Shown here: positions 2,234 to 54,290 of the stretch, one piece after another
Layout: each line of letters begins with the position of its first letter
Position numbering within the stretch: the first letter of the stretch is position 1
NCBI RefSeq assembly: GCF_011382985.1
Contig: NZ_CP049933.1
Span: 1,302,001-1,366,000, forward strand
Source of the DNA: Leucobacter coleopterorum
GTDB lineage: Bacteria; Actinomycetota; Actinomycetes; Actinomycetales; Microbacteriaceae
DNA length: 64,000 bases
Direction of reading: 5' to 3'
Translations under genes and position numbers: made by a program
Notes under the pieces: generated by a model
What the model was told of the DNA's origin: nothing
The model's database searches: none
What the model saw: the letters and a program-made list of their open reading frames with translations, nothing else

Positions 2234-2605
2234 ATGGCTCTGTCAGAGCACGAACAGCGGCTGCTGGACGAAATGGAACGCGGTTTCTATCGCAGCGAAG
2301 CTGACGTTATGCAGACCGCTTCCGTGCGTCGCACTCGTACAAATTACCGATCTCTCGTGCTGGGCACCATCGTTTGCATCGTCGGTATCGGCGTGCTGAT
2401 TGGCGGTGTCGCTGCTCAGCAACTCTGGCTTGGGCTTATCGGCTTTGCCACCATGCTGGGTGGAGTGCTTCTCATGTTCGCGCGTGGCCCAGATGCCGAA
2501 GCGACCGATGAGGAGGGCTCGCCAATGAAGAAGAAGGAAGAGCGGGAGTCCTTTAGCGAGCGCATGGAGCGCCGTTGGGATGAGCGCATGGAAGGCGAGC
2601 GCTAG
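2234..2605 (+). CDS. DUF3040 domain membrane protein
   Basis: A 123-aa protein opens with the DUF3040 signature (LSEHEQRLLDEMERGF) and has two hydrophobic segments at about residues 40-60 and 64-82, then a charged tail rich in Glu, Arg and Lys. The family is actinobacterial and its function is unknown; it commonly lies just upstream of mraZ, as here. The ATG at 2234 is preceded by a good ribosome site (AGGAGG). It is divergent from the polyprenyl synthase and ends in a strong terminator, so it forms a separate transcription unit from the division cluster. Confidence 0.85.
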   Translation: MALSEHEQRLLDEMERGFYRSEADVMQTASVRRTRTNYRSLVLGTIVCIVGIGVLIGGVAAQQLWLGLIGFATMLGGVLLMFARGPDAEATDEEGSPMKKKEERESFSERMERRWDERMEGER

Positions 2606-2627
2606 TCGCATAAGCAGCAGTTTCTAG

Positions 2628-2657
2628 GGACCGTGGCATTAGCCACGGTCCTTTTTT
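2628..2657 (+). terminator. Rho-independent terminator after the DUF3040 gene
   Basis: A perfect 10-bp stem (GGACCGTGGC / GCCACGGTCC) with a 4-base loop is followed immediately by six T residues. Confidence 0.9.
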
Positions 2658-2708
2658 CTTGCCCACGGTGTCTGTCTCGCTTGGGTGCCTCTTTTGGGTG
2701 GTCAGTTG

Positions 2709-2724
2709 CTCCACTTTGCTCCAC
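2709..2724 (-). promoter_or_regulatory. Upstream pair of MraZ-like boxes in inverted orientation
   Basis: Two CTCCAC hexamers (minus strand GTGGAG) lie at 2709-2714 and 2719-2724, exactly 10 bp apart. They are the same hexamer found in direct orientation just before mraZ, about 140 bp downstream. Confidence 0.45.
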
Positions 2725-2851
2725 AATTGCGTGAAAGCTTGCATCTGCGGCTCCCAATTGTTGATTTCAAGCGGTGTCACGTGCTCAAGGGTGAGTTTGG
2801 CGTGCCAGAAGAATCGGCGCAATCGCGGGCAATTTCTGCATACCTTTAGTG

Positions 2852-2890
2852 AAGTGGAGTAAAAAATCATCTAAGTGGAGGAAAGTGGAG
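2852..2890 (+). promoter_or_regulatory. Putative MraZ operator: three AAGTGGAG boxes
   Basis: AAGTGGAG occurs at 2852-2859, 2873-2880 and 2883-2890, spaced 21 and 10 bp apart and so on the same face of the helix. MraZ proteins are known to bind tandem short repeats with about 10-bp periodicity upstream of their own gene, so this is very probably the autoregulatory operator of the cluster. Confidence 0.7.
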
Positions 2891-2932
2891 TAGTCTGGGG
2901 TCGTTGATCGCGTCAGGGAGAGGAGAGGTGCC

Positions 2933-3364
2933 ATGTTTTTGGGAACCTTCACGCCTCGCCTTGACGAAAAAGGACGGCTGATCCTTCCCGCAAAGTTTCG
3001 TGATGAGCTCTCTGACGGTCTTGTGATCACTCGTGGGCAGGAACGTTGCCTCTACGTGTTCAGCGAGGCAGAGTTCGCGTCGATGCACGAACGCATTCGA
3101 CAGGCACCAGTCACTTCAAAGCAGGCGCGTGACTACCTGCGTGTGTTTCTGTCGGGTGCGCACCCGGAAACACCGGATAAGCAGTCTCGAGTGACCATTC
3201 CCGCAGGCCTTCGCGAATACGCGGGGCTCGACCGCGAACTCGCTGTTATCGGCGCCGGATCCCGAGCCGAGATCTGGGATGCCGAAGCCTGGCAGGCTTA
3301 CCTGACGGCGCAGGAATCCGCATTCTCTGACATCGAAGAGGAGGTGATTCCGGGCATGTTCTAG
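2933..3364 (+). CDS. mraZ: Transcriptional regulator MraZ
   Basis: The protein has 143 aa, the usual length, with two AbrB-like half-domains: residues 1-50 ([18 protein letters not shown]) and about 75-120 ([18 protein letters not shown]). MraZ is a ring-forming DNA-binding protein that represses the division and wall cluster. The ATG is preceded by AGGAGAGG. The GTGGAG boxes 40-80 bp upstream fit autoregulation. It is the first gene of the mraZ-rsmH-ftsL-ftsI operon. Confidence 0.97.
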
Positions 3365-3375
3365 CCCGGAGACCC

Positions 3376-4347
3376 ATGACTCAACACGATGAACGAGACG
3401 CAAGCGCACTGCACACTCCGGTACTGCTGCAACGCTGCCTTGAACTCCTCGCTCCGGTTGCTTCGCAAGAGGGAGCCGTGGTGGTCGATGCAACCCTCGG
3501 CATGGGTGGCCACAGTGAAGCGCTCCTTGAGAGAAATCCTGGTCTCACACTGATTGGGTTGGATCGGGACACCGAAGCTCTGCGGCTGGCAGGGAACAGG
3601 CTTGCGAGGTTTGGTGAGCGAGCCATCCTGGTACACGCGGTCTATGACGAAGTCGCAGAAGCCGTGCTCGATGCCGGGTCTGACCGCATCGACGGAGTGC
3701 TCTTTGACCTGGGTGTCTCATCGCTGCAACTTGATGAGGCCGAGCGCGGATTTGCGTACGCGCAAGACGCGCCACTCGACATGCGAATGGATCAGAGCAG
3801 GGGTGAGACCGCTGCCGAGGTGCTCGCGGTTGCCCCCGAAGGGCGACTGCGCGCGATCTTTGAGCGCTACGGCGAGGAACCGCTCGCGGCACGGTACGCG
3901 AGGGCCATTATCGCGGCTCGTGCTGACTCGCCGATCGAGCGAAGTGGACAGCTCGTTGACATTTTGCAGCAGGCAACTCCCGCTGCGGTGCGTGACCAGC
4001 GGCATCCAGCAAAGCGCGTTTTTCAGGCGCTGCGGATCGAGGTCAACAGCGAACTTTCGGTGCTTGAGCGCGCGATCCCCGCGGCTCTTGACTTGCTCGC
4101 GCTGAACGGTCGAGCCGTCATCATGGCCTACCAATCACTTGAGGATCGCCTTGTGAAGCGAGAGCTTGCGCAGCGGTCCCGTTCGACGGCCCCAGCGGGG
4201 CTGCCCGTCGAACTTCCTGAACATCGTCCCGAGTTTCGCCTGCTTACACGCGGAGCGGAACTCGCCGACGAACAAGAACGTGCCCAAAACCCACGGGCAA
4301 TCCCGGTGCGCTTGCGCGCCGCTGAGCGAGTAAGGGGTGTGGAATGA
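3376..4347 (+). CDS. rsmH: 16S rRNA m4C1402 methyltransferase RsmH (MraW)
   Basis: The 323-aa SAM-dependent enzyme N4-methylates C1402 of 16S rRNA. It shows the N-terminal HTPVLL, the SAM-binding segment [16 protein letters not shown] at about residues 36-51, GLDRD, and [18 protein letters not shown]. The ATG follows mraZ by 11 bases, and its stop overlaps the next start in an ATGA junction. Confidence 0.97.
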
Positions 4348-38663: not shown

Positions 38664-40718
38664 GTGGCGGCTGTCGTGAATATCGCGAGCGCCTATGAGC
38701 TTGCAGAACCCGCTGCCGGACGACCGGTAGCGCAGGTGCTGCTCGACTCCGCCTTGCCGCAGCTTGATCACCTCTTCGATTATGCAGTGCCGGTAGACCT
38801 CGCTGAAACCCTGCGCGTCGGGCAGCGAGTGCGTGTGCCGTTCCGTTCGAAAGACCGAAAGACTTTCGGGTACATCGTCGGGTTTGCTGACCGCAGTGAG
38901 TTTGGCGGCGAACTGTCTCCCATTGCAGACATCGTCACGACGGTTCCGCAGCTGACGCCTGACGTGTGGCGCCTTGCGCGTGCCGTCGCGGATCGGGCTG
39001 GCGGTTCGGCAGGCGATATCTTGCGCCTTGCGATCCCGACCCGGCAAGTGAGGGTTGAAAAGAAACACCTCGCGGGCGAGGCAAAGGGCGCAGTCACGGT
39101 CGCAGCTGCCGAGGGTGCACCCGAGCGTGAGATAGAGACAACCCCAGAAGGAGCGATCGCAGCGGAGCTGATTGTCGGAGCGCGCCTGTCACACACGGCC
39201 TCACACGGGCCAGAACGTCTGCACACCGGCGAGTGGGTCGGTGGGTGGGCAGCTCAAATGGCTCGTGTTGCGCTCGCGGTGTTTGCGAGCGGTAGGAGCG
39301 CGATCCTCGTTGCCCCCGATTACCGAGACCTCGATCAGTTGCGCGACGCTTTAGCGGCGCTGGGGCACCCCGACGTGGTCCGGGTGGATTCCCGGCAGTC
39401 AAACTCCGAGCGTTACGCAGCATTTTTGCGCGCGCTCGATGCGACACCTCGAATTGTGCTGGGTAATCGCTCCGCGGTGTACGCGCCGGCTCATAATCTG
39501 GGTGCGATCCTGCTCTGGGATGATGGTGACCCCGTGCTGGCGGAACCGCTCAGCCCCTACGTGCACGCGCGTGACGCGGCGTTGATTCGCGCTGAGCAAT
39601 CGGGCGCAGGGTTGCTGTTCGCCGGGCATGTGCGCAGCGCAGAGGTGCAGCGTCTCGTTGAGATTGGGTATGTACTGGCGCAGCAGAATCTGCCGCGGCG
39701 CACCCGCGTGTTTCACGCAGACGCCGCGCGCGCGCCAGATGCCTTTGCGGGTCGTGTACCTGAGTTTGCTGCGCAGACCATTCGTGAGGGCTTGAAGACC
39801 GGTCCCGTGCTTGTGCAGGTCGCGACGCCCGGGTACGCGCCGGTGGCGGTGTGCGGTGACTGCGGCGATCTTGCCCGCTGTATGAACTGCGCCGGGCCGA
39901 TTGGGTTCCGAGTGGTGGGTCGGGCTTCGTGCCGATGGTGCGGCGAATTCGCGAACGCCTGGCGGTGCGGCAGCTGCGGCAGCGGGCGCCTGCAGGAGCG
40001 CGGCATGGGATCCGGACGCACCGTTGAACAGTTCGAGCGTCAATTTGCCGGGGTGCGAGTGCTGCTGAGCGACGGCGAACACCCGCGTGAGCGCGTTGAT
40101 GCCAGACCAGCCCTCGTCGTTGCGACTCGCGGGGCCGAGCCACTTGCTGCCGGGGGATACCGCGCGGTGGTGCTGCTTGATGCTGAGCGGTTGCTCGGCA
40201 TTGAGACCCTGCGCGCGGGCGAGGACTGTTTGCGATGGTGGGAGAACGCTGCGGCACTCGCAGCCCCCGACGGTCTGTGCCTCGTGGCTTCGGGCGGGGG
40301 TCCCGTAGTGCAGGCTTTTGTTACGGGCCGCAGCGAAGAATGGCTGCGGGGCGAGGTGCGGGATCGGCACACGTTGCGCTACCCGCCCGCCGTGCGGGTG
40401 GCGAGTGTGAGCGGCGGATCCGAAGAAGTCGAGCGTGCGCTGCACACCATTGCCGATCTGCCTGGAGTTGATTATCTCGGTCCAACTCAGGTTCCGGTGC
40501 GTGTTACTCAGGGCGGAGCTGCCTCACCCGCGGGGATCGTGCGTGCGATCGTGCGCTTCGATTACGTTCAGGGAGCAGAAGTAGCGAAGCGTCTTCGTGG
40601 CGCCCTGGTTGCGGATGCAGCAGGATCCGCCTCCCGTGCCAAAGGCCGCGCCCCGGGCCGTGCCCGACCCGAGGCGCTGCGCCTGCGCTTCGACGATCGT
40701 GGTGTGTTCGACGGATAG
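38664..40718 (+). CDS. priA: PriA-like primosomal protein with degenerate helicase
   Basis: The 684-aa protein has the PriA DNA-binding domain (about 27-130; AQVLLDSALPQLDHLFDYAVP) and the paired zinc sites (CGDCG, CMNC, CRWC, CGSCGSG near residues 395-445). The Walker A and DEAH-type motifs of helicase PriA are absent: the expected P-loop region reads ALAVFASGRSAILVAP, and LLWDDGDP replaces the Walker B box. Actinobacterial PriA proteins are known to be predicted non-helicases. It is coupled in place to metK and normally to fmt. Confidence 0.9.
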   Translation: MAAVVNIASAYELAEPAAGRPVAQVLLDSALPQLDHLFDYAVPVDLAETLRVGQRVRVPFRSKDRKTFGYIVGFADRSEFGGELSPIADIVTTVPQLTPDVWRLARAVADRAGGSAGDILRLAIPTRQVRVEKKHLAGEAKGAVTVAAAEGAPEREIETTPEGAIAAELIVGARLSHTASHGPERLHTGEWVGGWAAQMARVALAVFASGRSAILVAPDYRDLDQLRDALAALGHPDVVRVDSRQSNSERYAAFLRALDATPRIVLGNRSAVYAPAHNLGAILLWDDGDPVLAEPLSPYVHARDAALIRAEQSGAGLLFAGHVRSAEVQRLVEIGYVLAQQNLPRRTRVFHADAARAPDAFAGRVPEFAAQTIREGLKTGPVLVQVATPGYAPVAVCGDCGDLARCMNCAGPIGFRVVGRASCRWCGEFANAWRCGSCGSGRLQERGMGSGRTVEQFERQFAGVRVLLSDGEHPRERVDARPALVVATRGAEPLAAGGYRAVVLLDAERLLGIETLRAGEDCLRWWENAAALAAPDGLCLVASGGGPVVQAFVTGRSEEWLRGEVRDRHTLRYPPAVRVASVSGGSEEVERALHTIADLPGVDYLGPTQVPVRVTQGGAASPAGIVRAIVRFDYVQGAEVAKRLRGALVADAAGSASRAKGRAPGRARPEALRLRFDDRGVFDG

Positions 40719-40765
40719 GTTTGACGCTTGCGCAGAGGGCTCGCCCCGCAGTGAAAACGATCCTC

Positions 40766-41971
40766 TTAGGCTCCGCGCAGGCGATCCGCGACGAAGTCTA
40801 CGTCTTTGTCACCGCGGCCCGAGAGGTTCGCGATGATGATTGCGTCGCTCGGAAGTGTCGGGGCAAGTTTGACGACCTCCGCCAGAGCGTGTGCAGACTC
40901 GAGGGCCGGGATGATGCCCTCCTGCCGAGTCAGTAGCTGGAACGCTGACACTGCCTCCTCGTCAGTTACCGAGACGTATTCGACTCGACCCAGCTGTTCA
41001 AGGTGCGCGTGCTGCGGCCCGACTCCCGGGTAGTCGATGCCCGAGGCGATGGAGTGCACTGCGGAGGGCTCACCGTCTGAGTCCTGCAACACCTTCGTGT
41101 GCATACCGTGCAGCACACCCGGTACACCGAGTGTCATGGTTGCGGCGTGCCGATCCCCATCGAGCCCCTCACCCGCGGGCTCAACCCCGATGATTCGCAC
41201 GGACTCGTCTTCGAGAAACGCGTCAAACAGGCCCATCGCGTTTGAACCACCACCGACAGCTGCCACGAGCACTTCGGGCAGGCGCCCCTCTTCCTCAAGA
41301 ATCTGAGCGCGCGCCTCGCGCCCAACGACGGACTGGAAATCGCGCACCATTGAGGGGTACGGGTGCGGCCCCACAACCGATCCGATGGCGAAGAAATAGT
41401 CTTCGGGCTTTGAAGCGAAGACCGCAAACGCCGAGTCGACTGCCTCCTTGAGCGTCTTTCCACCCTCTTCAACGGGTACAACCTTGGCACCGAGCAGCTC
41501 CATGCGCACCACGTTTGGGTGCTGCTTTGCGATGTCGACCGCTCCCATGTGGATCTCGCACTCCAGCCCAACGAGGGCGGCGGCGGTCGCGAGCGCAACG
41601 CCGTGCTGGCCCGCCCCGGTCTCGGCAATGAGCGTCTTTTTGCCCATGCGCTTTGCGAGCAGAGCCTCACCGAGACAGTGGTTAATTTTGTGGGCACCGG
41701 TGTGGTTCAGATCTTCGCGCTTGAGGTAGATACGAGCGCCTCCGAGAGTAGCCGTCAGGTTCTCAGCGAAGTACAGCAGAGAAGGGCGGCCAACGTACTT
41801 TGTGAGTAGCGACTGCAGCTGGCGCTGAAACTCGGGGTCTTGTGACGCCTGCTCGTAGGCGGTGGCCACTTCGGTGATCGGCTCCACCAAAAACGGCGGT
41901 AGTGCGGATCCGCCAAACTCGCCGAAAAATCCAGCTTCGTCAGCGCGGTAGGGAGAAAGTGTGATGGTCAT
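40766..41971 (-). CDS. trpB: Tryptophan synthase beta chain, solo copy under Trp attenuation
   Basis: The 401-aa PLP enzyme condenses indole and serine. It has [21 protein letters not shown] (PLP Lys near residue 89), [17 protein letters not shown] and the C-terminal NLSGRGDKD. It is clearly different from the 420-aa trpB at 55981, so this is a paralogue, not an assembly duplicate. It stands alone, convergent to priA, without trpA. Its 5' leader encodes a Trp-rich peptide and attenuator. ATG 41971 follows AAAGGA. Confidence 0.93.
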
Positions 41972-42009
41972 AACTTCTGGTCCTTTGCTTCATTGCGCCG
42001 CCCATAGAC

Positions 42010-42038
42010 AAAAATACCGCCTACGAGGAGGCGGTATT
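42010..42038 (-). terminator. Trp attenuator terminator hairpin (3:4)
   Basis: On the minus strand AATACCGCC (42038-42030) pairs perfectly with GGCGGTATT (42021-42013) around an 8-base loop, then runs into TTTTT. It lies between the leader peptide and the trpB start. Confidence 0.9.
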
Positions 42039-42079
42039 GGAAATATGCGTATGCGCACGGGAAACCGCCCTCAGGCGGT
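42013..42079 (-). promoter_or_regulatory. Trp attenuation leader with alternative hairpins
   Basis: Segment 1 is ACCGCC (42079-42074), segment 2 GGCGGT (42069-42064), segment 3 contains ACCGCC (42035-42030), and segment 4 GGCGGTATT (42021-42013). Segments 1:2 and 3:4 pair, or alternatively 2:3. Segment 1 starts directly after the tandem Trp codons, so a ribosome stalled on them would free segment 2 to form the antiterminator. Confidence 0.85.
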
Positions 42080-42103
42080 CCACCACTGAATCACAATGTG
42101 CAT
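42071..42103 (-). CDS. trpL: Trp leader peptide (MHIVIQWWTA)
   Basis: Ten codons and TGA, with two adjacent TGG codons at 42085-42080 just before hairpin segment 1. There is no ribosome site; TACACT lies six bases upstream of the ATG, so the leader is probably on a leaderless mRNA. The tandem Trp codons sense charged tRNA-Trp supply, as in other bacterial trp leaders. Confidence 0.88.
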   Translation of the reverse strand: MHIVIQWWTA

Positions 42104-42109
42104 GAGGGG

Positions 42110-42115
42110 AGTGTA
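42110..42115 (-). promoter_or_regulatory. -10 hexamer of trp leader promoter
   Basis: Minus-strand TACACT is followed by CCCCTC and the leader ATG at 42103, so transcription would begin at or next to the A of the ATG. Confidence 0.6.
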
Positions 42116-42166
42116 GCAGGTGTGCACCGCACCTTGGCAAGCAGCAAAAGCTGCGAGAATGGTCGA

Positions 42167-43081
42167 ATGCGAGTTGTCTTTGCCGGGACCCCGGAGTTTG
42201 CCGTACCGAGCCTGCGTGCGCTCGCTCAGAGTGACCACGAAGTCGTTGGTGTCATCACGAGAGAGGACGCACCGCTCGGGCGCAAGCGGATCCTCACCCC
42301 TTCGCCGGTTGCTCTTGCGGCTGACGAACTCGGCATCCCCGTATTCAAGGCAAACAAACTCGGTGACGAGGCTACTGCCTGGGTTCGCGACCTGGCCCCG
42401 GAGCTCGGTGTGATTGTCGCCTACGGCGGACTTGTTCGCGAGCCACTGCTGTCGCTGCCAACCCTGGGGTGGATCAACCTGCACTTCTCAGATCTCCCGC
42501 GCTGGCGCGGTGCCGCGCCTGTGCAGCGCGCGCTGCAAGCGGGGGAGCAGGAACTCGGTGTGACCGTGTTCCGCCTGGTTGAGGCGCTGGATGCGGGTGA
42601 CGTGTTGACACGTGATTCGCAGGCTTTTGCCCCCGGAACATCCGCGGGGGAGGCTCTCACCGCGCTCTCACAATCCGGCACGGATGCCCTGCTTGCTGCG
42701 GTCGATGGGCTTGCTGATGGCTCTCTCGTAGGCGAGCCGCAGACCGGCGACGCGAGCTATGCGCACAAGCTGAGCCGAGAAGATGGGCGACTAGATCTCA
42801 GCCTTCCCACACAGAGCGTGCTCGCCCACTGGGCGGGAGTGACACCGGAGCCCGGTGCATTTGTGCAGGTTGACGACCAACCATTGAAGGTGCTTGAGGC
42901 GAGCGCGGTCGAGCAGATCACCGGTGTGCTCCCTGGTGCTGCAACGATTCAAAAGGGTAAGGCGGTCCTGAATCTAGTTGATGGCGCGCTCGAACTCACT
43001 CGGGTGCAACCGGCCGGAAAGGCCGCGATGGATGGGGCCGCGTGGCTACGTGGCCGCGGTGAGGAAGCGGTGGCGCGATGA
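42167..43081 (+). CDS. fmt: Methionyl-tRNA formyltransferase Fmt
   Basis: The 304-aa enzyme formylates initiator Met-tRNA. It has VVFAGTPEFAVPSLRAL at the start, the formyl-transfer site region (VVAYGGLV-like, with LGWINLHFSDLPRWRGAAPVQRA; catalytic Asn and His) and a C-terminal anticodon-side domain. ATG 42167 fits the family start. It diverges from the trp leader 63 bp away and overlaps rsmB by 4 bases. Confidence 0.95.
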   Translation: MRVVFAGTPEFAVPSLRALAQSDHEVVGVITREDAPLGRKRILTPSPVALAADELGIPVFKANKLGDEATAWVRDLAPELGVIVAYGGLVREPLLSLPTLGWINLHFSDLPRWRGAAPVQRALQAGEQELGVTVFRLVEALDAGDVLTRDSQAFAPGTSAGEALTALSQSGTDALLAAVDGLADGSLVGEPQTGDASYAHKLSREDGRLDLSLPTQSVLAHWAGVTPEPGAFVQVDDQPLKVLEASAVEQITGVLPGAATIQKGKAVLNLVDGALELTRVQPAGKAAMDGAAWLRGRGEEAVAR

Positions 43082-44559
43082 GTGAGCGGCAAATACGTGG
43101 CGGTCAGGGCAAGCAGCGGGGCGGTCAAAATCGCAGCCAGGATCGCCGGCCTCGTGTATCCCGAGTCGAGATCTCTCCGGCTAGGTTGGTTGCTTATGAC
43201 GTGCTGCGAGACGTAGAAGACCGAGACGCGTACGCGAACCTTGCGCTGTCTTCGCGGATTCGCGAGGCTAATCTTGACGGGCGTGATGCTGCGCTCGCGA
43301 CGGAACTCGCCTCGGGCACGCTGCGTGAACGAGGACGTTACGACCGAATTATCGAATTAGCCGCGAACCGCGCTGTGAGTGATATTGATACTCGAACCCT
43401 CAACGTGCTTCGCCTCGGCGCTCATCAACTGCTGTCGATGCGCACGGCGGCGCACGCCGCGGTGAACGAGAGCGTCGAACTTCAGCGTCGTGTCGCAGGT
43501 CAGAGCGGCGTTGGCTTTGTGAACGGTGTATTGCGCGCGATCGGGCGTTCAACGCCGGCTGCGTGGGAGGCGAAGATCGTAGAGTCGGCAAGTTCTCCCG
43601 ACGAGGCTCTGGCTGCGCGGGATTCACATCCGGCCTGGGTGGTGCGTGCGCTGCGTGACGCATTGCGTTCCGAGGGACGTGAGCAAGAGCTCAAGGCTCT
43701 TCTCTCCGCAAATAATGAGTCACCCCGAGTCAGCCTTGTTGTGCTGTCAGGCTGGCACGCTGGAGATACGGAAGCTTTGGCAGACGCCGACGATCTCACC
43801 GCGAACGGACCGTCTCCTCTCGGGCTCGAACTGGCGGGAGGAGATCCCTCGCGCGCGATCAGTGCACTCGGGTTTCCTGAAGGCGTCGTGCGTGTGCAAG
43901 ATCAGGGCTCGCAACTTGCAGCACTCGCTCTCACCCGGCTACGGCCCGTAGCTGAGGGGGAGCGCTGGCTGGATCTGTGTGCTGGCCCGGGGGGCAAAAC
44001 GGCGGTGCTTGCTGCAGAGCTGCGCGGCGATACGCCTCCTGTGCGCGCCAATGAAGTGTCTGAGCACCGGGCCGAGCTCGTGCGACGCTCAGTTATTGCG
44101 GTCGCAGATAGCGTAAACGTGGTGAGTTTTGATGGCCGCGAAGCTGATGCTTACGGCGACGCGGACGCGCGATTCGACCGCATTCTTGTCGATGCGCCCT
44201 GTTCAGGGCTCGGCGCGCTGCGTCGCCGACCGGAGGCGCGCTGGCGCAAGCAACCCTCTGACCTGCCTGAGCTGACCGCTCTGCAGGGGGAACTGCTTGA
44301 TGCTGCGGTGGCGCGACTCGCCCCAGGCGGGGTGCTCGCTTATGTGACGTGTTCGCCTCACCTTGCGGAGACCAGAGTGACGGTTGACCGACTATTGAAG
44401 CGCAACTCAGAGATTCGTGAACTCGATGCGAAAGCCGTGCTTCAGCGTGTGGCGCGTGGTGATTTGGATCTCGCGGGCAGCGCCTTGAGTGCACAGCTGT
44501 GGCCGCATCGTAACGGTACAGACGCGATGTTTATCGCGCTGTTCGAGCGGGTCTCCTAG
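43078..44559 (+). CDS. rsmB: 16S rRNA m5C967 methyltransferase RsmB (Sun/Fmu)
   Basis: The 493-aa protein has a basic Gly/Gln/Arg N-terminus, a NusB-like RNA-binding domain (about 30-170) and a SAM methyltransferase domain with LDLCAGPGGKTAVLA near residue 300, VDAPCSGLGALRRRPEARW and TCSPHLAE. The two cysteines of PCSG and TCS are the m5C catalytic pair. ATGA overlap with fmt. Confidence 0.95.
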   Translation: MSERQIRGGQGKQRGGQNRSQDRRPRVSRVEISPARLVAYDVLRDVEDRDAYANLALSSRIREANLDGRDAALATELASGTLRERGRYDRIIELAANRAVSDIDTRTLNVLRLGAHQLLSMRTAAHAAVNESVELQRRVAGQSGVGFVNGVLRAIGRSTPAAWEAKIVESASSPDEALAARDSHPAWVVRALRDALRSEGREQELKALLSANNESPRVSLVVLSGWHAGDTEALADADDLTANGPSPLGLELAGGDPSRAISALGFPEGVVRVQDQGSQLAALALTRLRPVAEGERWLDLCAGPGGKTAVLAAELRGDTPPVRANEVSEHRAELVRRSVIAVADSVNVVSFDGREADAYGDADARFDRILVDAPCSGLGALRRRPEARWRKQPSDLPELTALQGELLDAAVARLAPGGVLAYVTCSPHLAETRVTVDRLLKRNSEIRELDAKAVLQRVARGDLDLAGSALSAQLWPHRNGTDAMFIALFERVS

Positions 44560-51521: not shown

Positions 51522-52312
51522 ATGTCAGTTGCAACACGTGTGATTCCATGCCTCGACGTTGCGGGTGGCCGCGTCGTGAAAGGCGTGAACTTTCTGAATT
51601 TGCGAGACGCGGGGACCCGGTTGAACTGGCCGCGCGCTACGCAGAGCAGGGTGCCGACGAACTCACCTTTCTTGACGTCACCGCAACCGTCGACGACCGC
51701 TCAACCACTTACGATGTGGTGCAGCGTACCGCCGAACAGGTTTTCATTCCGCTCACCGTGGGTGGGGGCGTGCGCAAGGTCGACGACGTTGCCCGATTGC
51801 TCGCTGTTGGGGCCGATAAAGTCGGGATCAACAGCGGCGCAATCGCGAGGCCCGCGGTGATTGGTGAAATCGCTGACCGTTTTGGTGCGCAGGTGCTTGT
51901 GCTCTCTCTCGATGTGAAACGCAGTGACCGTACCCCCTCTGGTTTTGTGGTGACCACCCACGGAGGTAAGCATGAGACCGATCTCGACGCGCTGGAGTGG
52001 TGCAGCGAGGCGGTTGAGCGTGGCGCGGGAGAGCTGCTCGTTAACTCAATGGATGCTGACGGTACACTTGCGGGTTTTGACTTAGAACTGACGGCAGCGG
52101 TGCGGGAACTCGCGACGGTCCCGGTGATCGCCTCGGGTGGTGCTGGCAAACTTGAGCACTTCGCGCCGGCGATCGAGGCGGGAGCCGATGCCGTGCTGGC
52201 AGCCTCGGTCTTTCACGACGGCACGTTTACCGTTGGCCAAGTCAAGCAGGCCCTTGCTGATGCCGGGCACACTGTGCGGCTGACGAATACCAGTGCCGGG
52301 GCCTACGCATGA
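51522..52312 (+). CDS. hisF: Imidazole glycerol phosphate synthase subunit HisF (frameshifted)
   Basis: This TIM-barrel cyclase (about 263 aa repaired) acts with HisH. It has [19 protein letters not shown] with the catalytic Asp, [24 protein letters not shown] and [11 protein letters not shown]. The frame breaks at G-run 51611-51614; one G joins NLRDAG to [12 protein letters not shown] 51522 lies 15 bases after hisG; the stop overlaps hisI (ATGA). Confidence 0.93.
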
Positions 52313-52674
52313 ACCCCGTAGACCCCGTTCCTGCGGATCTCGTTTTCGATGCGAACGGCCTGATCCCCGCCATTATCCAAGACGACGAGTCGGGTGATGT
52401 GCTGATGCTTGCGTGGATGGATCACGAGGCAATACGACGTACGCTCACCACCGGTAGAGTGACCTTCTGGTCGCGCTCTCGCGGCGAATACTGGCGCAAG
52501 GGCGACACCTCTGGCCACAGGCAGTACGTTCGTAGCGTTGCCGCCGATTGCGACAGTGACACGCTGCTTGTGCGCGTCGTTCAAATTGGGGCGGCGTGTC
52601 ACACTGGCACCCCCAGTTGCTTCACAGACCGGCAGATTCCCGCGCTTGTGGGGGATCCAGACTCACCTGTCTAG
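52309..52674 (+). CDS. hisI: Phosphoribosyl-AMP cyclohydrolase HisI
   Basis: The 121-aa zinc enzyme opens the adenine ring in step three of histidine synthesis. It has [37 protein letters not shown] and CHTGTPSCF with the zinc cysteines. It is separate from hisE here and precedes trpE by 20 bases. Confidence 0.96.
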
Positions 52675-52694
52675 CGGCCATGGCGCGATAGGCT

Positions 52695-54290
52695 GTGACG
52701 GTGACTCTGACGACAACGCGAGCCGCCTTTGACGCTGCGCGTGCATCCCATGCCGTTCTTCCTGTGTGCCGCGAGATTTTCGCGGACGCTGACACGCCCG
52801 TCAGTATTTATCGCAAGGTGGCCGGTGGTCGCGCCGGAACGTTTTTGCTTGAATCGGCGGAACAGGGTGGGGTGTGGACTCGCTTCAGCTTTGTTGGAAC
52901 AGGCAGCTTCGGGGTGCTCGGCGAGCGAGACGGCCGCGCTCACTGGGTGGCGAACCCTGATGATCAAAGCCTGTCTGAAGAGAGACTGCTGCTGGGCGGC
53001 GTGAGCGAACTCGCGCCAGTGGAAGCGCTGCGCGCCGTGTATGAGCGTTGGAGGTCACCCCAAGTTGAGGGATTGCCTCCGCTCGCGAGTGGTTTTGTCG
53101 GTTATGTGGGCTGGGACACGGTGCAGCAGTTTGAGCGCATCGAGGGTGGTGCTGTGGCAGCTGGCTCAGGGCCGGGCCTGCCTACCCAGGGCCTGAGCTT
53201 TGTGTCCGAACTTGTGGTGATTGACCATCGCGAGGGTTCCGTGGTGCTGTTGGTGAATGTGCTCAACGACGATGAGACCGTCTCAGGTAACGATCAGTGG
53301 GCATACGCACAGGCCCGGCTCGACTCATTGCAGGCCACCCTTGCTGCTCCGGCGTCATCGCCGCTGGGGGCGCTTGACCCGGATGCGATGCCGTATCCAA
53401 CTCGCCGCACGACGAGTGCTGAGTTCATGGAGACTGTCAATACAGCGAAGCGCCACATTGTTGACGGCGACATTTTTCAGGTTGTACCCTCCCAGCGTTT
53501 CGAGCAGGAGTGCTTGGCTGATCCGCTCGACGTCTACCGGGTGTTGCGCCACCTAAACCCGAGTCCTTACCTCTACCTATTGCAGCTCGAAGACAACGAG
53601 GGCCGCCCGTTTGCAGTTGTGGGGTCGAGCCCCGAGGCGCTCGTGACAGTCCAAGAGAATGGACACGCGATCACGCACCCGATTGCTGGTTCGCGCCCGC
53701 GTGGGGCGACGATTGAAGAGGATCAGCAGCACGAGCGTGAACTGCTCGCAGATGAGAAGGAGCGGGCCGAGCACCTTATGCTCGTGGATCTTGCGCGCAA
53801 CGACCTGTTGCGGGTTTGCCAGCCCGACTCGGTGGAGGTCACCGAGTTCATGCGAATCGAACGTTTTAGCCACATCATGCACATCGTGTCTACTGTTGAG
53901 GGGCAGGTGAGCGAGGGGAATAACCCCGTTGACGTATTCCGCGCCACGTTCCCCGCTGGCACACTCTCTGGAGCCCCAAAACCGCGTGCTTTGCAGATTA
54001 TCAACGAACTCGAGCCCGTCCCTCGTGGTGTCTACGGTGGAGTCGTTGGCTATTTTGGCCTCGGCGGTGCCGCTGATCTGGCGATTGCGATCCGCACAGC
54101 AACGATTCGTGACGGCATCGCGGTTGTGCAGGCGGGTGCCGGAATTGTTGCGGATTCCGTCCCTGAGACCGAGGATGCGGAGTGCCTCAGTAAAGCAGCC
54201 GCACCTCTGAGAGCGGTCGCCGTGGCAAACACATTGCGCCCATTGATCACCGGACTACAGACGAGTGTGGAGGGAAGCAATGCGCGCTAA
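52695..54290 (+). CDS. trpE: Anthranilate synthase component I TrpE
   Basis: The 531-aa chorismate-utilising enzyme makes anthranilate with a TrpG glutaminase encoded elsewhere. It shows FQVVPSQRFEQE, NPSPYLYLLQLED, PIAGSRPRG, ERAEHLMLVDLARND, and GTLSGAPKPRALQIINELEP. The N-terminal feedback-site region has LLESAEQGG, where most enzymes have LLES. No leader peptide is found in the 20-base gap after hisI, unlike the solo trpB. Confidence 0.96.
   Translation: MTVTLTTTRAAFDAARASHAVLPVCREIFADADTPVSIYRKVAGGRAGTFLLESAEQGGVWTRFSFVGTGSFGVLGERDGRAHWVANPDDQSLSEERLLLGGVSELAPVEALRAVYERWRSPQVEGLPPLASGFVGYVGWDTVQQFERIEGGAVAAGSGPGLPTQGLSFVSELVVIDHREGSVVLLVNVLNDDETVSGNDQWAYAQARLDSLQATLAAPASSPLGALDPDAMPYPTRRTTSAEFMETVNTAKRHIVDGDIFQVVPSQRFEQECLADPLDVYRVLRHLNPSPYLYLLQLEDNEGRPFAVVGSSPEALVTVQENGHAITHPIAGSRPRGATIEEDQQHERELLADEKERAEHLMLVDLARNDLLRVCQPDSVEVTEFMRIERFSHIMHIVSTVEGQVSEGNNPVDVFRATFPAGTLSGAPKPRALQIINELEPVPRGVYGGVVGYFGLGGAADLAIAIRTATIRDGIAVVQAGAGIVADSVPETEDAECLSKAAAPLRAVAVANTLRPLITGLQTSVEGSNAR

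What the first reader, a model, noticed from the sequence alone, without database searches (positions are those of the whole stretch)
42010..42115. Compact Trp leader-peptide attenuator controlling a solo trpB paralogue
Minus strand, in order: TACACT -10, six bases, a 10-codon leader MHIVIQWWTA with tandem Trp codons at 42085-42080, then segments ACCGCC / GGCGGT / AATACCGCC / GGCGGTATT and a T-tract. Segments 1:2, 2:3 and 3:4 are mutually exclusive, and segment 1 begins directly after the Trp codons, so ribosome stalling should favour antitermination. The controlled gene is a lone trpB without trpA, inserted between priA and fmt. The main trpE...trpA cluster in this window has no such leader.
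Basis: partly seen in the sequence, partly recalled or inferred. Interest (0 to 1): 0.85.

Follow-up and report, generated by a model that had tools for sequence, protein, structure and literature searches.

The report
Tryptophan-starvation switch for lone trpB
Just upstream of a stand-alone tryptophan-synthase gene in a Leucobacter-like bacterium lies a ten-codon reading frame with two adjacent tryptophan codons followed by hairpin-forming segments, conserved in relatives that carry the gene and predicted to be an RNA switch that would turn the gene on only when tryptophan runs short: a known kind of switch on an unusual target.

Summary
Minus strand: extended -10 (TGC-TACACT), six bases, a 10-codon ORF MHIVIQWWTA, segments 1-4, T-tract, then an SD and trpB. 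The leader lies intact upstream of the orthologous lone trpB in 34 of 35 congeneric genomes that carry the gene; in the 35th an insertion splits it. All 34 keep WW, exactly two codons to the stop, a -10 box 6-7 nt before the ATG, and all three predicted helices. Footprint geometry fits stall-dependent antitermination. Best reading: a leaderless, ribosome-mediated Trp attenuator of a lone trpB added between priA and fmt. The mechanism is a known kind (leaderless trpL of Streptomyces lividans and Sinorhizobium; C. diphtheriae trpB1 leader). Less usual is the target, a TrpB clade not found beside trpA, probably for indole salvage. Seven Patescibacteria-type genomes in which no TrpA was found also have a WW mini-ORF before a related trpB, but common descent of that switch is not shown. 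Transcript ends and response to Trp are untested.

The parts
42135..42140 (-). weak -35-like TTGCCA, 19-nt spacer (tentative)
   Evidence: by eye; the sigma-70 scan reports no promoter in the region at its threshold, so the site would rest on the extended -10
42110..42118 (-). extended -10: TGC TACACT, last base 6 nt before leader ATG
   Evidence: TANNNT 6-7 nt before the leader ATG in 34 of 34 leaders, TGN before it in 30 of 34
42071..42103 (-). leader ORF MHIVIQWWTA* (10 codons), predicted leaderless
   Evidence: 31 of 34 leaders are exactly 10 codons
42080..42085 (-). tandem Trp codons 7 and 8
   Evidence: TGGTGG in 34 of 34 leaders, always two codons before the stop (TGGTGG was also the search handle, but the 35th, split leader has it too)
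42074..42079 (-). segment 1 ACCGCC
42064..42070 (-). segment 2 GGGCGGT
42045..42058 (-). small spacer hairpin GTGCG-CATA-CGCAT; many relatives have GCATNTGCAT here
42030..42038 (-). segment 3 AATACCGCC
42013..42021 (-). segment 4 GGCGGTATT (terminator with segment 3)
   Evidence: 10-bp stem, loop 6; 4 terminator pairs with both sides changed in relatives
42010..42014 (-). T-tract
41981..41986 (-). Shine-Dalgarno AAAGGA of trpB
   Evidence: by eye
40766..41971 (-). lone trpB (401 aa), the controlled gene
   Evidence: tree
42164..43081 (+). fmt, divergent neighbour; its start codon is 23 bp from the -35-like site
   Evidence: TIGR00460
38664..40718 (+). priA, convergent neighbour
   Evidence: best NCBIfam match is a PriA equivalog, below its curated cut-off

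Best explanation
The minus strand at 42118-42010 carries an extended -10 box, a ten-codon reading frame with two adjacent tryptophan codons and complementary segments ending in a T-tract, which together are predicted to be a leaderless ribosome-mediated transcription attenuator that would allow the lone trpB to be transcribed only when charged tRNA-Trp is scarce. Likely steps: RNA polymerase starts at or next to the A of the leader ATG (inferred from the -10 to ATG distance); a ribosome initiates on the 5' AUG without an SD (inferred). With little Trp-tRNA it stalls at codon 7 or 8, covers segment 1 and leaves segment 2 free; 2:3 forms, the terminator cannot form, and trpB is read (predicted). 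With enough Trp it runs to the UGA, covers segment 2, and 3:4 plus the U-tract ends transcription (predicted). Without translation, 1:2 and 3:4 form and transcription also ends (predicted). The gene product is a TrpB of a clade not seen next to trpA here, so the likely benefit is to make Trp from free indole and serine during Trp shortage, beside the main trp cluster (inferred).
For: Sequence. Conservation: of 54 congeneric genomes 35 have this trpB (34 intact, G018 in two pieces); the leader is intact in 34 of 35; in G003 a roughly 1-kb insertion with a 324-aa ORF that reads like a DDE transposase (recalled) splits it at the leader stop codon, both halves remaining. Specificity: model R1 hits those 35 genomes at E 0.01 or better and 0 of the 19 others; the model was built from 32 leaders of this set, so the informative parts are G003 and the 0 of 19. 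Constraints: 34 of 34 have two codons from WW to the stop and a -10 6-7 nt before ATG. All three helices fold in 34 of 34 (1:2 -8.9 to -17.4, 2:3 -10.9 to -20.8, 3:4 -13.8 to -21.0 kcal/mol). Both-sided changes: 4 terminator pairs; in 1:2, GGCACGCC/GGCGTGCC (2 leaders) and ACCGTC/GACGGT (2 leaders) against the common ACCGCC/GGCGGT. Geometry (front edge assumed 15 nt past the first P-site base): stalled at the first Trp codon at least 6 nt and at the second at least 5 nt of segment 2 are free in 34 of 34; at the stop at most 3 nt are free in 32 of 34, 7 nt in two. Leader and gene move as a unit: in G036 and G037 both are inverted against priA and in G037 also against fmt. Relatives: WW leaders precede trpB of the same clade in Zimmermannella, Boudabousia, Gleimia and other Actinomycetales and TrpE-like genes in other genera. 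Independent: the best Rfam match, sub-threshold, is RcsR1 (RF02552, 28.6 bits, E 2.8e-4), reported to come from the same position as the rhizobial trp-attenuator RNA rnTrpL (PMC7143759, passages).
Against: No transcript or reporter data. A WW mini-ORF alone is at chance level. Single-sequence fold z is only -1.79 and the MFE lacks the terminator. The consensus scan finds no sigma-70 promoter and no excess of terminators in 40700-43200 (2 found, shuffles 2.1 +/- 1.5). Because the segments hardly vary, the cognate-versus-swapped pairing test is weak (cognate at least as good in 654 of 1044, 622 of 1044 and 787 of 1032 comparisons). trpB of the same clade exists without this leader in other actinobacteria: 2 of 5 further family genomes (G140, G202), 4 of 6 further order genomes (G461, G479, G543, G345), 6 of 11 named non-Leucobacter actinobacterial loci. 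One terminator (L100) has an interrupted T-tract. Several of the 19 congeners without the gene are incomplete, so their absences are weak. The promoter lies close to fmt, which could have other reasons.
Confidence: 0.9

Rival explanations
1. The terminated leader RNA or the leader peptide works mainly in trans, as rnTrpL/peTrpL do in Sinorhizobium, and attenuation of trpB is secondary.
For: Best Rfam match is RcsR1, linked to the trans-acting rnTrpL (PMC7143759 and PMC7298713, passages); the small spacer hairpin is partly conserved.
Against: The leader sits immediately upstream of the lone trpB, was not found in the 19 congeners without it, and is inverted together with it in G036 and G037; peptide residues 2-6 vary. 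The Rfam match is below the curated cut-off.
Confidence: 0.1
2. A fixed, unregulated promoter with a terminator that only lowers trpB expression; the WW codons are incidental.
For: No expression data; the WW mini-ORF alone is at chance level in one sequence.
Against: WW and its distance to the stop are kept in 34 leaders while other codons change; segments 1 and 2 are conserved although a bare terminator needs only 3 and 4; the genes around are priA and fmt on the other strand, and the only ORF upstream on this strand is antisense to fmt.
Confidence: 0.04
3. The hairpins act at translation (leader translation exposing the trpB ribosome site) rather than on transcription.
For: The MFE of the 133-nt leader pairs segment 3/4 sequence with bases near 42000.
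Against: A 10-bp stem followed directly by T has the form of an intrinsic terminator; the SD lies 23 nt beyond the T-tract and is not part of helices 1:2, 2:3 or 3:4.
Confidence: 0.05

Closest known systems
Streptomyces lividans trpL1-trpE attenuator (PMC8079986; passages read)
   Same: Actinobacterial, leaderless Trp leader peptide with adjacent Trp codons, hairpins and U-rich stretch before a single gene
   Different: Controls trpE (and trpL2 controls trpS), WWW in an 18-residue peptide; here WW in 10 residues before a lone trpB
Corynebacterium trp attenuators, including the one before trpB1EDGC of C. diphtheriae (PMC1262725, first of three parts and passages; PMC5784534, passages)
   Same: Classical attenuator; in C. 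diphtheriae the first gene after the leader is a trpB
   Different: There trpB heads a trp operon; here trpB stands alone. The conserved gGCC-rGCy-GGCC motif reported there is not in this leader (by eye)
Sinorhizobium trpL / rnTrpL (Rfam RcsR1, RF02552) (PMC7298713 and PMC7143759, passages)
   Same: Transcript begins at the leader ATG, short peptide, attenuator of a Trp gene; best Rfam match
   Different: Alphaproteobacterial, before trpE(G), acts also in trans; match is 28.6 bits against a cut-off of 60
Naturally stand-alone TrpB of Pelodictyon luteolum and LBCA-TrpB (PMC11917138, abstract and passages)
   Same: TrpB1-type enzyme not encoded beside trpA; the best PDB match of the lone TrpB is LBCA-TrpB 5ey5 (550 bits, next 487)
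   Different: By my own mapping only about 2 of the 6 Res6 positions agree

Membership tests
Ribosome-mediated Trp leader-peptide attenuators (mechanistic class) | Short ORF with tandem Trp codons just upstream of a Trp-related gene | tested here: met
Ribosome-mediated Trp leader-peptide attenuators (mechanistic class) | Intrinsic terminator (3:4) between leader ORF and gene | tested here: met
   as sequence and predicted fold
Ribosome-mediated Trp leader-peptide attenuators (mechanistic class) | Alternative antiterminator 2:3 and protector 1:2 overlapping it | tested here: met
   34 of 34 leaders, predicted folds
Ribosome-mediated Trp leader-peptide attenuators (mechanistic class) | Stall site positioned so that segment 2 is free on stalling and covered at the stop | tested here: met
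   footprint length assumed; 2 of 34 leave 7 nt uncovered at the stop
Ribosome-mediated Trp leader-peptide attenuators (mechanistic class) | Read-through rises on Trp starvation and depends on leader translation | not testable with these tools
   no expression data
Attenuators of the Corynebacterium/Streptomyces trp operons as aligned in PMC1262725 | conserved gGCC-rGCy-GGCC triples | tested here: not met
   segments are GGCGGT/ACCGCC/GGCGGT (by eye); so it is filed under the mechanism, not under that aligned set
Rfam RcsR1 (RF02552) | score at or above the gathering cut-off | tested here: not met
   28.6 against 60 bits
Rfam Trp leader and T-box families | a match in the region | tested here: not met
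   window at gathering: only a tRNA; 41950-42150 up to E 5: five matches, none of these families
TrpB (TIGR00263) | score above curated cut-off, catalytic motifs | tested here: met
   571 against 392 bits; HTGAHKIN, ETGAGQHG, GGGSNA, GRGDKD read in the translation (motif roles recalled)
Res6-type stand-alone TrpB (PMC11917138) | all six LBCA residues | tested here: inconclusive
   about 2 of 6 agree in the LBCA alignment; position mapping is mine

The most novel reading that the evidence does not exclude
A TrpB that has left TrpA behind and carries its own Trp-starvation switch forms a portable indole-salvage cassette, used by Actinobacteria as an emergency supplement and by ultra-small, TrpA-less Patescibacteria as their route to tryptophan; classical leader-peptide attenuation would then operate in the Candidate Phyla Radiation.
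Probability: 0.3. Interest if true: 0.75.

Novelty: new member of a known kind. Interest (0 to 1): 0.45.

Why it matters
If true, Trp attenuation singles out a stand-alone TrpB while no such leader was found on the trp cluster of the same genome, so the cell would treat indole-to-Trp capacity as an emergency function. The cassette is compact, predicted leaderless and self-contained, with a natural insertion mutant (G003) and inverted copies (G036, G037), which makes it a clean system for testing attenuation on leaderless leaders. If the Patescibacteria cases hold, indole cross-feeding by host-dependent bacteria becomes directly testable.

Tried and rejected
T-box, riboswitch or known Rfam leader: nothing at gathering but a tRNA; weak matches only. 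Leader of the main trp cluster: none found. Leader as terminator of an upstream gene: only an ORF antisense to fmt lies upstream on this strand. Same leader in Patescibacteria by descent: model R1 does not find those leaders (L062 at the right place with E 0.62, the other six no match there), so homology is not shown. Exact three-way segments of 5 nt or more with WW there: L028, L033, L034, L065; 4 nt only in L062 and L027; none in L061. That script is strict: it also misses L038, which R1 finds at E 2e-12. WW mini-ORFs in the 49 remaining loci (mostly Gammaproteobacteria): 4 of 49 (L041, L050, L058, L064); three show no segments and L064 is not re-found by the stricter script; taken as chance. 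TrpA within about 4 kb: none of 80 loci by tblastn with the window TrpA, without a positive control for distant TrpA; ORF lists of L034, L065, L072, L063 and L049 show none by eye. Swap test of cognate segments: weak. Further Patescibacteria TrpB: 7 more of 334 genomes drawn, 49-58% identical; WW mini-ORF in one of the seven, with AT-rich 4-nt matches only (L211). Papers: in the listings I saw (capped: 20 of 39, 9 of 9, 15 of 73, 20 of 32, 10 of 269, 10 of 462, 4 of 4) no title or abstract start told of a Trp attenuator on a lone trpB in Microbacteriaceae or Patescibacteria. Korolev et al. 2015 on Trp attenuators in Actinobacteria is cited in PMC4833913 (reference list, passage); I did not look for it as a paper, and it may already list related leaders.

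Full report
OBSERVATION. The minus strand reads exactly as described: TGC-TACACT, six bases, ATGCACATTGTGATTCAGTGGTGGACCGCCTGA, GGGCGGT, a spacer, AATACCGCC-TCCTCGTA-GGCGGTATTTTT, then an SD and trpB at 41971. In a shuffled window a WW mini-ORF alone turns up about once (mean 1.07), but the combination with repeated complementary segments and T-run was found once in the window and in none of 150 shuffles. One fine point: 2:3 excludes 1:2 and 3:4; 1:2 and 3:4 are compatible.

GENE AND PLACE. The gene is a full TrpB (TIGR00263, 571 bits, cut-off 392), 55% identical to the main TrpB of the same genome. It is convergent with priA and divergent from fmt. Of 54 congeneric genomes, 35 carry this trpB: 34 intact and one in two pieces (G018). 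In the other 19, several of them incomplete, priA and fmt lie within 300 bp of each other in 12 and within 750 bp in 15; in two (G041, G046) they are more than 2 kb apart and in two (G038, G045) priA was not found. So the gene looks like an addition to the priA-fmt gap; in some carriers (for example G044, G053) that interval is longer and must hold more than trpB. In G036 and G037 leader and gene are inverted together against priA; in G036 fmt is on another contig. The nearest named relatives by TrpB are Leucobacter species; the name of the genome itself is not given.

CONSERVATION. The leader was extracted from the 35 genomes. In 34 it is intact; in G003 an insertion of about 1 kb carrying a 324-aa transposase-like ORF splits it at the leader stop codon. 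The 34 leaders (32 distinct sequences aligned) all have TGGTGG (the search handle), exactly two sense codons to the stop, and TANNNT 6-7 nt before ATG; 30 of 34 have TGN before the -10 and 31 of 34 are exactly ten codons. Where several in-frame ATGs existed my script took one with a -10 box; this concerns L090, L098, L099, L108 and L114. Covariance model R1, built from the 32 sequences, finds the leader in the same 35 of 54 congeners, G003 as two halves, and in none of the other 19 at E 0.01.

STRUCTURE. Helices 1:2, 2:3 and 3:4 fold in 34 of 34. Four terminator pairs show changes on both sides. For 1:2, two variants, GGCACGCC/GGCGTGCC and ACCGTC/GACGGT, keep pairing by matched changes. The segments vary too little for a strong covariation test: swapping segments between leaders gave cognate pairs at least as stable in 654 of 1044 (1:2), 622 of 1044 (2:3) and 787 of 1032 (3:4) comparisons. 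With an assumed ribosome front edge 15 nt beyond the first P-site base, a ribosome stalled at the first Trp codon leaves at least 6 nt of segment 2 free and at the second at least 5 nt, in 34 of 34; at the stop codon at most 3 nt are free in 32 of 34 and 7 nt in two. That is the geometry a classical attenuator needs.

WIDER DISTRIBUTION. R1 was run over 249 family genomes (46 with a match at E 1) and 297 order genomes (39 with a match). Of the 54 loci examined, 42 have a WW mini-ORF: 31 before a TrpE-like gene, 4 before trpB of the lone clade (L123, L124, L132, L149), 2 before a TrpB nearer the main type (L168, L170, with WWW), and 5 with no match to the query genes (L155, L157, L158, L161, L167). 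I read the gene after L155 as trpS and that after L167 as an ABC substrate-binding protein, by eye. Of the 12 without one, L148 does have a leader near a contig end; the rest were treated as noise. Protein searches show the lone-clade TrpB in 5 further family genomes (leader in 3) and 6 further order genomes (leader in 1, probably on another contig in G521, absent in 4). Among the 80 loci, WW mini-ORFs occur in 12 of 12 Leucobacter-type, 5 of 11 other actinobacterial, 7 of 8 Patescibacteria-type (the eighth, L017, holds only 153 nt upstream) and 4 of 49 other loci (grouping by title and the tree). The tree (94 rows) sets the lone-TrpB rows apart from the one main TrpB included and from L168/L170; the leader label needs 6 changes on it against 29.3 in shuffles.

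PATESCIBACTERIA. In seven genomes of 0.5-1.2 Mb with this TrpB no TrpA was found (0 of 7; control 14 of 14). Five are named as Nomurabacteria or Pace(i)bacter(ot)a, two (L033, L062) are unnamed and placed there by the tree. Completeness is not told. Their leader peptides are longer and most of the leaders AT-rich, and R1 does not recover them, so common descent of the switch is not shown.

MECHANISM. Shown: the sequence elements, their conservation, their linkage to the gene. Predicted: folds and footprint logic. Inferred: start at the ATG, leaderless initiation, Trp response, indole salvage. The consensus scan sees no sigma-70 promoter here and no terminator excess, and the full-length MFE does not show the terminator although the centroid does.

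KNOWN OR NEW. Leaderless Trp leaders are known from S. lividans (trpL1 before trpE) and Sinorhizobium, Trp attenuators from Corynebacterium and Streptomyces, with one before trpB1EDGC in C. diphtheriae. The best, sub-threshold Rfam hit is RcsR1, reported at the same position as the rhizobial trp-attenuator RNA. So this is a new member of a known kind. What I have not seen described, in the capped listings and with Korolev 2015 unread, is such a switch on a lone TrpB.

Noticed in passing
L027, L028, L033, L034, L061, L062, L065: Patescibacteria-type genomes in which no TrpA was found carry a trpB preceded by a WW mini-ORF and hairpins; a sequence that looks like trpR (by eye) lies just upstream in L027 and L065.
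   Followed up: partly
L028, L033, L034 between terminator and trpB: A second short ORF with the shared end HCTE(Y/F)W lies between the attenuator and trpB (by eye), reminiscent of a further regulatory peptide.
   Followed up: no
L117 about 2300-3420: In G003 a transposase-bearing insertion with ends TGTACTGACC/GGTCAGTACA sits at the leader stop codon, flanked by the repeated CCTAG: a natural attenuator disruption.
   Followed up: partly
G018 C11:69091-70274: Lone trpB broken into two overlapping pieces while its leader is intact.
   Followed up: no
L155, L157, L158, L161: Leader ending MQWWPA; in L155 the following gene reads like tryptophanyl-tRNA synthetase (by eye).
   Followed up: no
L167: WWW leader before an ABC-type substrate-binding protein (by eye), possibly of a tryptophan importer.
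   Followed up: no
L122, L125-L131, L133-L141 and 14 order loci: WW leaders before a TrpE-like gene about 30-36% identical to the window TrpE, probably a fused anthranilate synthase in some.
   Followed up: partly
window 42000-41981: A block like GGCGCAATGAAGCAAAGGA before trpB recurs in several relatives and contains an out-of-frame ATG.
   Followed up: no
window 52309-52695: trpE begins 20 bp after an ORF that looks like hisI (by eye), suggesting a his-trp supra-operon without its own leader.
   Followed up: no
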